DNA of 40,388 nucleotides from an uncultured Lachnospiraceae bacterium (lineage in GTDB: Bacteria > Bacillota > Clostridia > Lachnospirales > Lachnospiraceae), in the NCBI GenBank assembly GCA_944376425.1, contig CALWCS010000168.1, forward strand, positions 1-40,388. The letters run 5' to 3'. Below, one piece after another: positions 4,285 through 8,941 of the stretch (positions are counted from its first letter, which is position 1; the number at the start of each line of letters is the position of its first letter). Position numbers and translations under genes: made by a program. The notes beneath the pieces were generated by a model that did not search any database, was not told where the DNA came from, and was given only the letters and a program-made list of their open reading frames with translations.

Positions 4285-4791
4285 TCACAAAACTTCAACC
4301 GTTGTGTCCCCTTTTTCAATTTTTGCGATAAACAGAGGATCCCCTTTTTTTACCTTCTGTCCGTCCTGTACACAGATCTTTGTAACTTCTCCAAGACACT
4401 TTACAGACAGATTATACGGCATTTCATCTTCATCCTGGATACTTCCGATTTCCATTCCGTCTTCATCGTTAAGCTCTTTGCCAACTCTAAGAAGCGGTCC
4501 TTTTTTCTCTATGTAGTAAAAAAAACCGTCCATCGGCGCCAAAATCTCCTGCTCGTTTTCTTCTTTCTGGTCGCTTTCTTCTTTTGTATCTCTTTCCTTT
4601 TGTTCTTTCTGTATGGTTTCTGTCTCTTCTAAGTTTGAAACGTTTTCTTTTTCTCTTTCTTCTTTTTGAGTCTGTTTTTTTTCTTTCTTCATTTCTATTT
4701 GTATCCCATTTTCATCTTGTCTAAAAGAAAAATTCGTCAATGATGATTGCGATACTTTTTCAATCAATGTCAAAATATCCTGAAATTCCAT
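4285..4791 (-). CDS. AccB/BCCP-like lipoyl-fold protein lacking the biotin-acceptor lysine
   Basis: Residues 1-36 resemble the N-terminal helix-strand of biotin carboxyl carrier protein AccB. Residues 37-82 form a Lys/Glu linker. Residues 83-161 match the biotinyl/lipoyl beta-barrel: APMDGFFY at the start, and GEVTKI plus GQKVKKGDPLF at the end. In true BCCP the hairpin between these carries EAMKM, whose lysine is biotinylated. Here the equivalent stretch reads IQDEDEMPYNL with no lysine, so the protein should not be biotinylated. It is also not next to accC or accA/D but heads the leftward arm of the Hsp70/ESCRT-like locus. The start ATG follows AGAAGGAAA. The inferred role is a carrier fold reused as a binding or scaffold domain. 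Automated annotation would probably call it acetyl-CoA carboxylase BCCP subunit, which would mislead. Confidence 0.8.
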   Translation of the reverse strand: MEFQDILTLIEKVSQSSLTNFSFRQDENGIQIEMKKEKKQTQKEEREKENVSNLEETETIQKEQKERDTKEESDQKEENEQEILAPMDGFFYYIEKKGPLLRVGKELNDEDGMEIGSIQDEDEMPYNLSVKCLGEVTKICVQDGQKVKKGDPLFIAKIEKGDTTVEVL

Positions 4792-4953: not shown

Positions 4954-6009
4954 ATGGTAGATTTATTTCATCGCTTCAGACAAAAAACGTCTGCTGCGGA
5001 CGAACAGAAAGAGCAGGAGGAATCCTCTGTCTCTTTATCTGCTTCTTCTGATACCTGGTATGAAAAAAACCGTGCTTCCGGAAATCATTTAATGGAACAG
5101 TTTGATGATCTGGAAAATGAGATTGCCTGCCTTTCTCTTCCGGAAAGTCCCGAATCTTCTCAAGCACAAAAAAATGCTTCTGATAAGCTGATCTCTTTGC
5201 AGCAAAATTTACTCGATTTTCCGGCTTCTGATCAGGATCTCTCCCAAACGGATCAACTGCTTTATGATGCACTCGACTTTTTAAAGCAAAACTGTATCGA
5301 AGAACTGAAAAAAACATTGACCTCTTCCGATCCGATTGATCCTATCGTTATGGAAACGTTTGCCCGTTCTACGATGCATACCATCTTAAAAATATTAGAT
5401 ACTGTTTTAGATTATGGTATTAATATCGTACGCCGTGAAACATCACAAGAGATTTATCCTGTCAAATTAGACAATCTTCAAAACCGTCTGCAAGTGGCAA
5501 GAGCAGAGTTCGTCTGCTCACAGTGCGAAAAGAATATCATGATCTATACAAAAGAAAAAGCGAAAAAAACTCAGTCTGTCCGGGAGATTTCCGATACTTC
5601 TTCTCTGTCAAAGAAAGCAGAGCTTGCTACTTTAAAACAAACCATACGCAATCTTCGCCTTGATATTGAAGATTTGCAGGCAAAATGGAACACGCATTAT
5701 GAACTTTCTTTGATGTCTACAGATAAAGATATTATCGGTCTTTCAGAAACCGAAAAAACAGCGCTCCGCAGACAGCAGGAACAGCGGTTAAAAGAAAAAG
5801 CAAAACAGATAGAAAAAAATTATATGGAACTTCATGAACATTTAAATGTAAGCAAAGCAGTCACCGACGAAGCTGAAAAAGTTACAAAAGATCTTGACCA
5901 GATGTTTGGAGGAATGTTAGAACGTGAAAAACATCAGGAACAAGAGATGCAGACCCAGCATGAGACTGTTCAAGAAAGCCAGAAAGAAAAAAACCGTTCC
6001 ACTGTCTAA
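4954..6009 (+). CDS. Helical/coiled-coil protein, first gene of the ESCRT-like operon
   Basis: The 351-residue protein belongs to no family I can name. Residues 1-60 are Ser/Glu-rich and probably disordered. Residues ~60-180 are amphipathic helices including a hydrophobic stretch around TILKILDTVLDYGINIV. Residues ~210-340 form long coiled-coil helices ending in a Gln/Glu/Lys-rich tail. It has no signal peptide or transmembrane segment and only two cysteines (CSQC). AGGAGG precedes the ATG by about 10 bases. It is followed by the ESCRT-III-like and Vps4-like genes on the same strand with gaps of 66 and 15 bases. By position and helicity it may be a second filament-forming or nucleating subunit, but no ESCRT-III signature is clear and this remains inference. 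Confidence 0.7.
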   Translation: MVDLFHRFRQKTSAADEQKEQEESSVSLSASSDTWYEKNRASGNHLMEQFDDLENEIACLSLPESPESSQAQKNASDKLISLQQNLLDFPASDQDLSQTDQLLYDALDFLKQNCIEELKKTLTSSDPIDPIVMETFARSTMHTILKILDTVLDYGINIVRRETSQEIYPVKLDNLQNRLQVARAEFVCSQCEKNIMIYTKEKAKKTQSVREISDTSSLSKKAELATLKQTIRNLRLDIEDLQAKWNTHYELSLMSTDKDIIGLSETEKTALRRQQEQRLKEKAKQIEKNYMELHEHLNVSKAVTDEAEKVTKDLDQMFGGMLEREKHQEQEMQTQHETVQESQKEKNRSTV

Positions 6010-6075: not shown

Positions 6076-6738
6076 ATGTCTCCTAAAATGAATTCTATTT
6101 TTCAGATTCGAAAAAATCGCCGTGAAGTCCAGGAAGTCAAGCGTGAAGAGCTGCTTGACCGTATTTTTGACAGTTGTATCTCGATACAGGCGTACATTAA
6201 TTCCATGGATTCTCAGCTTGATTTATACCTTGCGAAAGCAAAGCAGGCACAGCAAGCCTGCAACAAAAGAGAACTTTCCTTTGCCTATGCTAATATCCGC
6301 ACCGCATTGACCCAGAAAAGAGTTGCCGAGATTATGTATGAAAATCTCTCTCAGATTCGCAATCAGGTAAAATTAAATACTTTAATTCAGACCTTCTCCT
6401 GTGATGTGTCGGCAATGGCAGACCTTTGCAGAAGTCTAAACGGGAATTTAAATATTAAAAAAGTGATGAAAGACTACAATGATATTATGCGTCCTTTAGA
6501 GTCTTCCAGTCTCCAGTTTGATTATTTTAACGAATCGCTGATCCAATCTATGAATGCAGCTTCTTACGGAGATATGGGAATTTCGGATGCTGAGATAGCC
6601 TCTATGATTGAGGCACAATCGATTTCTCAGTCCCTGCCCCCTAAAACGGCATATACAACTTCTTCTTATCCTGGAGGGGATAGTAAAGGAAAGAGCAAAG
6701 CGACTGATTCTCTTAGAGAACGGTTAAATCGTTTTTAG
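6076..6738 (+). CDS. ESCRT-III-like (CHMP/Vps24-type) helical protein with C-terminal MIM1-like motif
   Basis: The 220-residue all-helical protein starts with a basic N-terminal helix (residues ~6-25, QIRKNRREVQEVKRE). Long helices follow to about residue 160, then an acidic helix (ISDAEIASMIE, ~169-179), a Ser/Pro/Gly linker, and a final helix TDSLRERLNRF. The pattern around ELSFAYANIRTALTQKR, then SLNGNLNIKKVMKDYNDI and the LQFDYFNESLIQSM helix, follows the CHMP1/Vps24 order (AExAIRxKN, then KSMDxxLKxMxLEKISxLMDKFE, then a DxxxxMEDxM helix). The last eight residues, LxxRLxxF, approximate the MIM1 consensus LxxRLxxL that docks on Vps4 MIT domains. The start is ATG 6076, or GTG 6073, with AAGGA 7-10 bases upstream; a TTG at 6052 has no suitable site. 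The gene lies 15 bases before the Vps4-like ATPase. The homology call rests on reading by eye only. Confidence 0.6.
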   Translation: MSPKMNSIFQIRKNRREVQEVKREELLDRIFDSCISIQAYINSMDSQLDLYLAKAKQAQQACNKRELSFAYANIRTALTQKRVAEIMYENLSQIRNQVKLNTLIQTFSCDVSAMADLCRSLNGNLNIKKVMKDYNDIMRPLESSSLQFDYFNESLIQSMNAASYGDMGISDAEIASMIEAQSISQSLPPKTAYTTSSYPGGDSKGKSKATDSLRERLNRF

Positions 6739-6753
6739 AAAAGGAGAAAGGTT

Positions 6754-8001
6754 ATGGCAGAAAACATCAATCGTGCTCAGGTAGCACAATACCAGTCAGA
6801 ATACGACCGAGCCTATAAAAAATATCAGCGCAGTCCAGATTCAAAGGAAGGACTCGAATTTTTAAAACAGGCTATTCGCGCGCAGATCGATCTTGCCGAT
6901 TTGTTTCCAGAAGAACCCGGACAGGAAAACTTTGAGCGTGCTTACCATTTAAAACGTGCAGAAGAACTGATGTCAGTGTTGGAAGCATCTCTTCCTCCAG
7001 CTTTAAATCAGCCGGAGGATTCTTCTTTTTCCGTAAACAAGGATACTTCGGAATCATTTTCTTTTCATTCTTCTGATTCTTCTTCCTTTCCAGGCAGAGA
7101 AAAAGAAAAAGGAACTGATGAAACGGAAAAAGTCATCGAATCTGTCCGTGTCATTCAAAAACCATCTACGACCTTCGATGATATCAAAGGACTTGAAAGC
7201 GTCAAAAAAACACTGCTGGAGCTTTGTTCTCCTGATGAATCGAGAAAAGAAATTTATCAGTATTATAACGTTCAGCTGCCACGCAGATTTTTGTTTTACG
7301 GACCGCCCGGAACAGGAAAAACTATGCTTGCTGAAGCATTTGCAAACGCTATGTTTGAAGGGCAAGATGATGCGCCGTTCTTTCTTGTCAATGGAAACGA
7401 TCTTGTCAGCTGTTATGTCGGGGAAACCTCAAAGGCAATCGACGCCCTTTTTTCAGAAGCAAGAAAGCACTCAAACTGCGTTATTTTTATGGACGATGTC
7501 GATTCTTTTTTCCGCTCCAGAAAACTTTTGGAAAAGTCGGATGAAATCCGCAATCTGACTACTTTTTTGACGGCGCTTGATGGATTTGGAACAAAAAATG
7601 ACACTTCAATTGTCATCTGTGCCACAAACCGACCCGATACAATTGACGATGCGATTTTAGGACGATTTCCGCAGAGAATCGAAATTCCTCTTCCGGATAA
7701 AGAAGCCCGCCGTGCTATGATTACAGATGTTTATCTTAAATCTCTAAAATCAAATCTAACTGAAGATATGATTGAAGAACTTGTAGAAGGAACCGAAAAC
7801 TATAACGGACGCGATATCAAAGGTCTTTGTCAAAAACTTTTAAAAGCTTTTTGCGACTTTCTTCCTGCCGACTGCCCTCTTCCCTATCCAAAAACAGTTC
7901 CGCATGAACTTTTAAGAGAAGTTCTCTCTTCTTCCTATTCCAGCGTCAATTTAGAGCAGGTCGAAGAAATTCGAAGATGGGCAACCAAAGGAAAAGCTTA
8001 A
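6754..8001 (+). CDS. Vps4/katanin-class AAA ATPase with MIT-like N-terminus
   Basis: Residues 5-78 look like a three-helix MIT-type bundle (AYKKYQ, LKQAIRAQIDLADLF, AYHLKRAEELMSVLE). Residues 79-135 are a Ser-rich linker. Residues ~140-365 are one AAA module. Visible motifs are Walker A GPPGTGKT (183-190), pore loop DLVSCYVGET (216-225, cf. Vps4 DLVSKWMGES), Walker B VIFMDD (243-248), sensor-1 ATN (290-292), arginine finger GRF (303-305), IPLPDKEAR (311-319) and GRD (352-354). The C-terminus VPHELLREVLSSSYSSV followed by a helix with W409 matches the Vps4-C/meiotic-clade ending. The single AAA domain and these signatures separate it from FtsH, Lon, ClpX and Cdc48. The catalytic Walker B glutamate is aspartate. 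The start ATG follows AAGGAGAAAGG. Known role of the clade: pulling ESCRT-III or tubulin subunits through the hexamer pore. The likely substrate here is the upstream protein. Confidence 0.82.
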   Translation: MAENINRAQVAQYQSEYDRAYKKYQRSPDSKEGLEFLKQAIRAQIDLADLFPEEPGQENFERAYHLKRAEELMSVLEASLPPALNQPEDSSFSVNKDTSESFSFHSSDSSSFPGREKEKGTDETEKVIESVRVIQKPSTTFDDIKGLESVKKTLLELCSPDESRKEIYQYYNVQLPRRFLFYGPPGTGKTMLAEAFANAMFEGQDDAPFFLVNGNDLVSCYVGETSKAIDALFSEARKHSNCVIFMDDVDSFFRSRKLLEKSDEIRNLTTFLTALDGFGTKNDTSIVICATNRPDTIDDAILGRFPQRIEIPLPDKEARRAMITDVYLKSLKSNLTEDMIEELVEGTENYNGRDIKGLCQKLLKAFCDFLPADCPLPYPKTVPHELLREVLSSSYSSVNLEQVEEIRRWATKGKA

Positions 8002-8008
8002 GCTTTCC

Positions 8009-8056
8009 ATGGACGAGTACTGTGGCTTTGCATAGTATTCGTCCATTTTTCTTTTT
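8009..8056 (+). terminator. Terminator of the ESCRT-like operon
   Basis: The inverted repeat ATGGACGAGTACT / AGTATTCGTCCAT is followed by a T-rich run, just after the stop codon of the AAA ATPase gene. It isolates the operon from the downstream lectin-fold gene. Confidence 0.85.
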
Positions 8057-8152
8057 CTTCCCATTGTATCCTTTCTGATTTTGATGTATGATAATATCAT
8101 TCTATCCTTTACGAAAAATTTACGTTTCAAAATTTTATCTGGAGGTGTCACC

Positions 8153-8941
8153 ATGCGGAAGTTTCTCTTAATTATTCTCGTTTGTTCTGCTGTTCTCTCC
8201 TCTTCGTTTCCTTCAAAAGCTAATATTACCACACCGGATGTCGCAATGGAATACGAAGGTCATTATTATCAGCTTTATACTCTGACTATGACCTGGGAAG
8301 AAGCTCAAGACTATTTTAACAGTATCGGAGGACACCTTGCAGTCATTACTACGCAGGGAGAAAATGATTTTCTTTTTAACTACTTACTGTCTATGGGATA
8401 TACTTCTGCCTTCTTTGGCGCATCAGACACGGAAACACCCGGAATCTGGAGATGGGTGACGGGCGAGACATTTCAGTACTCCAACTGGAATCCAAAGGTC
8501 AATTCTTCTCAAAGCGGCACAAACCATTATGCCATGTTCTGTTCGGAATCATACGACGGAACATGGGATATAGGAGAGATTTCAGAGCAAAATGGCTCTG
8601 TCAGTGAAACATTATTTCTGTGTGAGTGGGATCATCTCCTGGAAAGATCCTATTCAGCAGAAGATACCTTCTTTTCTTCTTCTGATGTCTATCAGTATGA
8701 AGTTTCCGGCAACCAGATCAATCTCAATTCTTCCCAGGAGGCGGAAGCTTCTCCTGTTTCCAGTTTTGGTTTCCGAGGTATTCAGATTAATCTTTGGATT
8801 GACAATCTCAGTCTGATCGATCTCAGTATGATTGGAATCGGCGGTTCCAGTGTGATCGGATTTTTGTTATTTCTTGTCAATAAATTAAAAAACCGAAAAA
8901 AAAGACAAAACGTAAAAATGCGGCAAAAAAGGCGGAGATAA
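8153..8941 (+). CDS. Secreted, C-terminally anchored C-type lectin-fold protein
   Basis: The 262-residue protein starts at ATG 8153, which follows GGAGGTG by 5 bases. An in-frame upstream extension to 8081 lacks a ribosome binding site. Residues 1-23 are a signal peptide ending in SKA. Residues ~33-160 form a C-type lectin-like domain: GHYYQLYTLTMTWEEAQDYF, GGHLAVI, FFGASD, WRWVTGE, YSNWNP and a closing FLCEW. Residues 165-220 are a Ser-rich stalk, ~222-242 a transmembrane helix, and 243-262 a strongly basic tail that would sit inside the cell. Such domains bind carbohydrate or protein ligands outside the cell. The ligand cannot be inferred, and the classical calcium EPN/QPD loop is not evident. 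The gene is separately terminated from the preceding operon. Confidence 0.8.
   Translation: MRKFLLIILVCSAVLSSSFPSKANITTPDVAMEYEGHYYQLYTLTMTWEEAQDYFNSIGGHLAVITTQGENDFLFNYLLSMGYTSAFFGASDTETPGIWRWVTGETFQYSNWNPKVNSSQSGTNHYAMFCSESYDGTWDIGEISEQNGSVSETLFLCEWDHLLERSYSAEDTFFSSSDVYQYEVSGNQINLNSSQEAEASPVSSFGFRGIQINLWIDNLSLIDLSMIGIGGSSVIGFLLFLVNKLKNRKKRQNVKMRQKRRR

What the first reader, a model, noticed from the sequence alone, without database searches (positions are those of the whole stretch)
6076..8001. Bacterial ESCRT-III-like protein encoded next to a Vps4-class AAA ATPase
The ATPase reads as a Vps4/katanin/spastin-type protein throughout (DLVSxYxGET pore loop, IPLP-x-x-x-AR, GRD, a Vps4-C-like ending) with an MIT-like N-terminal bundle. 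The gene 15 bases upstream encodes an all-helical 220-aa protein whose order of segments follows CHMP1/Vps24. The pair Vps4 plus ESCRT-III is the core of membrane remodelling in eukaryotes and some archaea. In bacteria only the distant PspA/Vipp1 relatives, without a Vps4 partner, are familiar to me. If confirmed this would be a complete ESCRT-like module in a Clostridia member. The motif content is seen directly; the homology and function are inferred.
Basis: partly seen in the sequence, partly recalled or inferred. Interest (0 to 1): 0.95.

Follow-up and report, generated by a model that had tools for sequence, protein, structure and literature searches.

The report
Bacterial ESCRT-III with Vps4-like partner
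A clostridial bacterium carries, side by side in one gene cluster, a protein predicted to fold like the ESCRT-III filament proteins that bend and cut membranes in archaea and eukaryotes and a motor ATPase with a predicted matching docking domain, so it likely has a small ESCRT-like membrane-remodelling machine of a kind that a 2024 survey placed only in archaea and eukaryotes.

Summary
The 220-aa protein (6076-6738) is predicted to form an ESCRT-III-type hairpin core; Foldseek's first 17 PDB hits are all ESCRT-III or Vipp1. Its extreme C-terminus (LRERLNRF) is a MIM1-like peptide, kept in 9 of 9 distinct relatives tested. The N-terminus of the adjacent AAA ATPase (6754-8001) is predicted as a three-helix bundle whose first 10 Foldseek hits are all MIT domains, the receptor of such peptides. 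The same genome holds a second, more canonical ESCRT-III/MIT-AAA operon. The two ESCRT-III-like families match profile to profile (E 4.5e-7), and one member of the second family exceeds Pfam's Snf7 cut-off. In a distant relative the pair lies in one run with the lipoyl-like, multi-TM, 466-aa and Hsp70-like genes whose homologues flank it here. Weak points: no structure hit at E 0.001 or better, no Snf7 or MIT Pfam hit in the window's own proteins, unresolved AAA phylogeny, and Asp in place of the Walker-B Glu. All functional steps (polymer, docking, ATP-driven remodelling) are inferred; nothing is tested at the bench.

The parts
6076..6738 (+). 220-aa ESCRT-III-like protein (helices predicted at 23-60, 64-121, 127-142, 154-161, 171-180, 211-218)
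   Evidence: profile match to family 2; Snf7 below cut-off in 3 of 7 relatives but not in this protein
6703..6735 (+). MIM1-like C-terminal peptide TDSLRERLNRF (residues 210-220)
   Evidence: pattern in 9 of 9 distinct proteins with an intact end; shuffled tails 0-2.2%; 0 of 148 background frames have L..RL..[LF] in the last 12 residues
6754..8001 (+). 415-aa Vps4-like AAA ATPase
   Evidence: PF00004 4.8e-38; CdvC model 154.5 bits, below its cut-off, aligned to the model's end; alignment of 9
6754..7002 (+). MIT-like three-helix N-terminal domain (residues 1-83; helices 7-26, 31-49, 60-79)
4954..6009 (+). 351-aa helical/coiled-coil-like protein, first gene of the run; candidate recruiter
   Evidence: same position in L009 (48%), L010 (63%) and L061; the L061 protein (388 aa) has no BLAST match to it, only length, place and a 22% global alignment
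8009..8046 (+). terminator-like hairpin after the ATPase gene (16 pairs)
   Evidence: 8 such sites found, 3.1 expected in shuffles
4285..4791 (-). 168-aa lipoyl/biotin-carrier-like protein, divergent neighbour
   Evidence: TIGR00531 7.6e-13, 49.2 bits, below cut-off 115.2; homologues in L009, L010, L061
3692..4207 (-). 171-aa protein with four hydrophobic segments
   Evidence: homologues in L009 and L061, none found in L010
2214..3665 (-). 483-aa protein without a family
   Evidence: homologues in L009, L010, L061
541..2190 (-). Hsp70-like ATPase, 549 aa
   Evidence: PF00012 2.7e-10, above cut-off; homologues in L009 (65%) and L061 (47%)

Best explanation
The window encodes a 220-aa protein predicted to fold like ESCRT-III and, 15 bases downstream, an AAA ATPase with a predicted MIT domain, and the two likely form a bacterial ESCRT-like machine that would remodel or repair the cell membrane. 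Inferred mechanism: the ESCRT-III-like protein would polymerise on the cytoplasmic face of the membrane through its helical hairpin. Its C-terminal MIM1-like peptide (LRERLNRF) would dock on the MIT domain of the (presumably hexameric) ATPase. The ATPase would pull subunits through its pore (aromatic pore-loop residue Y221) and so reshape and take apart the filament. The 351-aa protein and the 4-TM protein would bring the filament to the membrane, as CdvA does in archaea (recalled) and YdjG/YdjH/YdjI do for PspA in Bacillus subtilis. Shown by calls: gene order, conservation, motifs, profile match to a second bacterial family, shared neighbourhood. Predicted: both folds. Inferred and untested: polymerisation, MIM1-MIT binding, ATP-driven disassembly, membrane action. 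Main cell division is an unlikely task, because the genome has FtsZ above its cut-off.
For: Foldseek ranks 1-17 all ESCRT-III/Vipp1 and 33 of the 50 rows shown; VIA ranks 1-5 all Snf7/Shrub. Profile match of the two bacterial ESCRT-III-like families over 145 columns, prob 92.6, E 4.5e-7, against prob 0.8 and 0.1 for a control coiled-coil profile. Family 2: P0195 above the Snf7 cut-off, P0184 just below; the own genome's copy Snf7 4.2e-5; L043 ATPase has Pfam MIT 3.2e-5, below cut-off. MIT fold ranks 1-10. MIM1-like end in 9 of 9 distinct proteins. Arg-finger loop deletion shared with 5 of 5 Vps4-group references, 0 of 20 others. Adjacent pair in 4 of 4 loci read (window, L009, L010, L061) and the flanking genes' homologues in one run in L061.
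Against: 0 of 578 Foldseek hits reach E 0.001 and the model's mean pLDDT is 60.5; VIA scores are within one Z unit of unrelated hairpins. The window's own proteins have no Snf7 or MIT Pfam hit. Of 10 family-2 proteins scanned 6 have no Snf7 match at 0.01. AAA phylogeny is unresolved; by NCBIfam the PAN model scores slightly above CdvC (160.4 and 154.5 bits, all below cut-off), an FtsH of the same genome beats the window's ATPase on the CdvC model (155.5 and 151.8 bits), and the nearest proteins outside the family are CDC48-type. Walker B reads DD instead of DE in 9 of 9. The own genome's family-2 protein lacks the MIM1 pattern.
Confidence: 0.72

Rival explanations
1. A PspA/Vipp1-type protein, the known bacterial branch of the superfamily, that has acquired a generic AAA unfoldase; it stabilises membranes and the ATPase only regulates it.
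For: Vipp1 chains are among the first 17 structure hits (ranks 5, 7, 11, 13, 15, 17); PspA with AAA+ partners is in print (PMC11237479, passages).
Against: PspA_IM30 is not listed for any of 7 relatives at E up to 10 whereas Snf7 is for 3 (the filters drop most weak matches). The best structure rows are CHMP1B and Snf7. A MIM1-like tail and an MIT-like domain side by side point to the Vps4 type of coupling.
Confidence: 0.13
2. A protein-quality-control or disaggregase module: the helical protein is an adaptor that hands substrates to a CDC48/PAN-like AAA unfoldase, together with the Hsp70-like neighbour.
For: An Hsp70-like gene stays in the cluster; sequence searches of the ATPase are led by CDC48/p97 and PAN; its phylogenetic place is open.
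Against: The N-domain is predicted MIT-like; I saw no protease gene among the translated neighbours; the cluster has a 4-TM protein, which suggests a membrane; the adaptor's predicted fold ranks ESCRT-III first.
Confidence: 0.1
3. An anti-phage or other accessory defence system built on an AAA ATPase.
For: Patchy occurrence (4 of 397 family genomes); the ATPase matches PADLOC IetA models (1.1e-35).
Against: The IetA match covers the AAA core only, as expected of any related AAA. The 351-aa protein has no PADLOC match and the 220-aa protein only two weak ones (0.0024, 0.0054). The locus is in 3 of 3 genomes of its genus beside the same 94%-identical 1073-aa gene.
Confidence: 0.05

Closest known systems
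Archaeal Cdv / ESCRT systems (CdvA, CdvB = ESCRT-III, CdvC = Vps4)
   Same: ESCRT-III-like gene directly followed by a MIT-AAA gene, with a further gene upstream in the CdvA position; VIA's best MIT match is archaeal (2w2u_A; tied with others).
   Different: Found in Clostridia; the 351-aa protein has no shown homology to CdvA; Asp for the Walker-B Glu; extra Hsp70-like, lipoyl-like and 4-TM neighbours.
Eukaryotic and Asgard ESCRT-III/Vps4
   Same: Predicted helical-hairpin core like CHMP1B/Snf7, MIM1-like C-terminus, MIT-like N-domain, Arg-finger loop length.
   Different: No recognisable ESCRT-0/I/II; one ESCRT-III-like protein per cluster; none of the Vps4 beta-domain insert (recalled feature) in the 415-aa protein.
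Bacterial PspA/Vipp1 with YdjG/YdjH/YdjI (Bacillus subtilis)
   Same: ESCRT-III superfamily; membrane partners; the second locus of this genome has an SPFH protein as YdjI is.
   Different: PspA is not known to have a Vps4 partner (PMC7615534); no PspA_IM30 match here.
Bacterial VPS4-like ATPases reported in PMC11237479 (passages)
   Same: A Vps4-like ATPase gene in a bacterium.
   Different: There snf7 is said to be displaced by a TPR/6TM gene; here an ESCRT-III-like gene is adjacent.

Membership tests
ESCRT-III superfamily (Snf7/CHMP/CdvB/PspA) | Helical-hairpin core followed by shorter helices | tested here: met
   Predicted only. Hairpin confident, later helices mostly low; no hit at E 0.001.
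ESCRT-III superfamily (Snf7/CHMP/CdvB/PspA) | Sequence homology to Snf7 (PF03357) | tested here: inconclusive
   Window protein no match; 3 of 7 relatives below cut-off; indirect through family 2.
ESCRT-III superfamily (Snf7/CHMP/CdvB/PspA) | C-terminal MIT-interacting motif | tested here: met
   By pattern only: 9 of 9 distinct proteins; binding not tested.
ESCRT-III superfamily (Snf7/CHMP/CdvB/PspA) | Polymerises and binds membranes | not testable with these tools
   Needs EM and liposome assays.
PspA/IM30 branch | PspA_IM30 profile (PF04012) | tested here: not met
   Not listed for any of 7 members at E up to 10; filters drop most matches above about 0.1.
Vps4 / meiotic-clade AAA | N-terminal MIT domain | tested here: met
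   By predicted fold; by Pfam none in the window's protein, 1 of 6 N-termini scanned (L043, below cut-off).
Vps4 / meiotic-clade AAA | Aromatic pore loop and the short Arg-finger loop | tested here: met
Vps4 / meiotic-clade AAA | Groups with Vps4/katanin/spastin in a tree | tested here: inconclusive
   41/52; alternatives not rejected.
Vps4 / meiotic-clade AAA | Walker-B catalytic Glu (DE) | tested here: not met
   DD in 9 of 9; so I call it Vps4-like, not a filed member.
Vps4 / meiotic-clade AAA | Vps4_C (PF09336) | tested here: inconclusive
   Not among the 25 of 32 families shown for the window's ATPase; 17.7 bits, below cut-off 21.3, in the family-2 ATPase.

The most novel reading that the evidence does not exclude
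Bacteria have genuine ESCRT systems: ESCRT-III filaments with MIM tails driven by a MIT-AAA ATPase. This genome holds two of them, one tied to SPFH and 4-TM partners as in archaeal and PspA systems, the other to an Hsp70-like and a 4-TM partner. That would end the statement that vps4 plus ESCRT-III is confined to archaea and eukaryotes, either through an old bacterial branch or through transfer from archaea.
Probability: 0.72. Interest if true: 0.95.

Novelty: new variant of a known kind. Interest (0 to 1): 0.9.

Why it matters
[quoted passage not shown] A bacterial pair with matched docking parts would change how the origin of ESCRT is dated, would give a small two-protein system for reconstitution, and would point to an ATP-driven membrane-remodelling path in a clostridium that has FtsZ.

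Tried and rejected
Direct sequence searches of the 220-aa protein against PDB sequences gave no ESCRT-III, nor did the family-2 protein. A Snf7 scan of 392 genomes of the order gave 26 genomes with a match at E 0.01, none over cut-off; only the own genome's second locus covered nearly the whole model (2-157 of 171), the others being partial. The archaeal control Sulfolobus acidocaldarius also stayed below cut-off, so that scan is blunt. A CdvC scan rang in 14 of 14 control genomes, over cut-off in 1, so it does not discriminate. AAA trees: the full set left family 1 unresolved; removing the long row L006 moved it next to family 2 plus the Vps4 group at 41/52; I do not use this as proof. The 351-aa protein as a further ESCRT-III was tested and dropped (hhalign prob 0.8 and 0.1). 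Promoters: 6 sites against 7.0 expected, no evidence. PHROGs gave nothing for the 220- and 351-aa proteins. Contamination was considered and rejected: the same 1073-aa gene (93.8-94.5% identical) lies just beyond the module in all three genomes of the genus. Marginal matches called chance and not counted as members: G886, G033 and G309. Left out of the C-terminus count: P0008 (fragment, ends in the same peptide) and P0009 (fragment whose end departs from the family and does not match). Two of the 11 rows counted were duplicates, hence 9 distinct.

Papers: nine searches. I saw no title or abstract start in their listings that reports a bacterial ESCRT-III beside a MIT-AAA Vps4-like ATPase; subscription papers and preprints are not held and listings were capped, so this is not proof of absence. 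PMC11237479 was read in passages only; [quoted passage not shown]

Full report
What is there. Three genes run on the + strand: 4954-6009 (351 aa), 6076-6738 (220 aa) and 6754-8001 (415 aa), followed by a terminator-like hairpin at 8009-8046. On the other strand, starting 162 bases before the first gene, lie a lipoyl/biotin-carrier-like protein, a protein with four hydrophobic segments, a 483-aa protein without a family and an Hsp70-like ATPase.

Whose it is. The window is one contig (C168) of a 3.1-Mb assembly, 96.34% complete with 0.64% contamination. All 3 held genomes of its genus have the 220-aa gene. A distant relative (38% identity in the alignment) lies in another genus of the family, G204. 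In the family sample 4 of 397 genomes match. In the phylum sample 2 of 398 do, one being the own genome and the other a 78-residue match of 17.7 bits inside a 559-aa frame, which I take for chance.

A second system in the same genome. The ATPase search of the own genome found another ATPase on contig C101. Beside it lie a 195-aa protein with Snf7 at 4.2e-5 over positions 2-157 of 171, a 324-aa protein, a 226-aa protein with four hydrophobic segments, an SPFH (Band 7) protein and a 1415-aa protein. G152 has the same six genes in another order; the four partners match at 26-29% identity. Of the relatives of the 195-aa protein (61 proteins) ten were scanned: Snf7 at E 0.01 or better in 4 of 10, P0195 above the cut-off (28.9 against 27.3 bits), P0184 at 25.3, and 6 without a match. 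In the family sample 4 of 397 genomes match, two of them clear (own, G152) and two marginal; in an order sample 1 of 334. Profile-profile comparison joins the two bacterial families over 145 columns, prob 92.6, E 4.5e-7; the 351-aa protein's profile as a control gives prob 0.8 and 0.1. This chain, window protein to family 2 to Snf7, is the strongest homology evidence.

The link between the two. The C-terminus of the 220-aa protein, after a variable linker, reads TD(S/A)LRERL(N/S)xF in the closer relatives and LSDLRSRLNNL in the distant one. The broad MIM1-type pattern is present in 11 of 11 rows, 9 of 9 distinct proteins. In shuffles of each tail it arose in 0-2.2%; among 148 background open frames 5 match the broad pattern and 0 match L..RL..[LF] in the last 12 residues. 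In family 2 the broad pattern is present in 28 of 57 and [LIVM]xx[RK]L in 53 of 57; the own genome's copy has neither. The MIM1 consensus is recalled; [quoted passage not shown] So a likely docking peptide and its likely receptor are encoded next to each other.

Neighbourhood. In the distant relative L061 the order on one strand is 388-aa, ESCRT-III-like, MIT-AAA, lipoyl-like, multi-TM, 466-aa, Hsp70-like, 240-aa. The lipoyl-like, TM, 466-aa and Hsp70-like proteins match those of the window at 24-47% identity. The 388-aa protein holds the place of the 351-aa one, but BLAST finds no match between them and the 22% of the global alignment proves nothing. The 4-TM gene was not found in L010, and the L010 contig ends before an Hsp70-like gene could appear.

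How it probably works. An ESCRT-III-like polymer on the membrane, MIM1-MIT recruitment of the ATPase, subunit extraction, and with it reshaping or repair of the membrane; 351-aa and 4-TM proteins as recruiters. The genome has FtsZ over its cut-off and no PspA over its cut-off (best 27.3 bits inside a 1013-aa frame, cut-off 33.9), so membrane repair or a special remodelling task is more likely than main division. In B. subtilis the SPFH protein YdjI and the membrane proteins YdjG/H bring PspA to the membrane (PMC8581546, abstract); the SPFH and 4-TM genes of the second locus fit that pattern. All functional steps are inferred.

What is known. [quoted passage not shown] SPFH proteins occur in archaeal ESCRT loci; a coiled-coil component occurs in most ESCRT systems. 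PMC7615534 (passages): bacteria lack a clear Vps4 homologue. [quoted passage not shown] some PspA or Snf7 homologues occur with AAA+ ATPases. PMC8281802, PMC7618577 and PMC13051332 were read in passages, which name no bacterial Vps4 partner. The present pair, with its matching docking parts and a second system in the same genome, was not seen in the listings searched.

Verdict. [quoted passage not shown] On re-checking I lowered the weight of the 351-aa gene (no sequence match in L061) and left the odds as they were.

Noticed in passing
L062 1278-10402 (G000 contig C101); L063 8497-16842 (G152): A second ESCRT-III/MIT-AAA operon with an SPFH (Band 7) protein, a 4-TM protein, a 319-324-aa protein and a very large 1242-1415-aa protein; transposase-like frames (recognised by eye, recalled) lie near both copies.
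   Followed up: partly
window 7492-7506 (ATPase residues 247-251): Walker B reads MDDVD: Asp instead of the catalytic Glu, conserved in 9 of 9 relatives of this ATPase, while the second locus has the usual DE.
   Followed up: partly
whole genome G000: No PspA/IM30 protein over Pfam's cut-off was found in the 96%-complete genome that has two ESCRT-III-like genes.
   Followed up: no
window 8081-8941; L009 11898-12815; L063 4771-6162: A C-type-lectin-domain protein with hydrophobic ends (Lectin_C 1.1e-10) follows the ATPase gene; a relative (31% over 135 residues) lies near the second-family operon of G152 as well.
   Followed up: no
L061 2500-3222: The run in the distant relative ends with a 240-aa coiled-coil-like protein that has a weak PspA_IM30 match (0.0055, below cut-off).
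   Followed up: no
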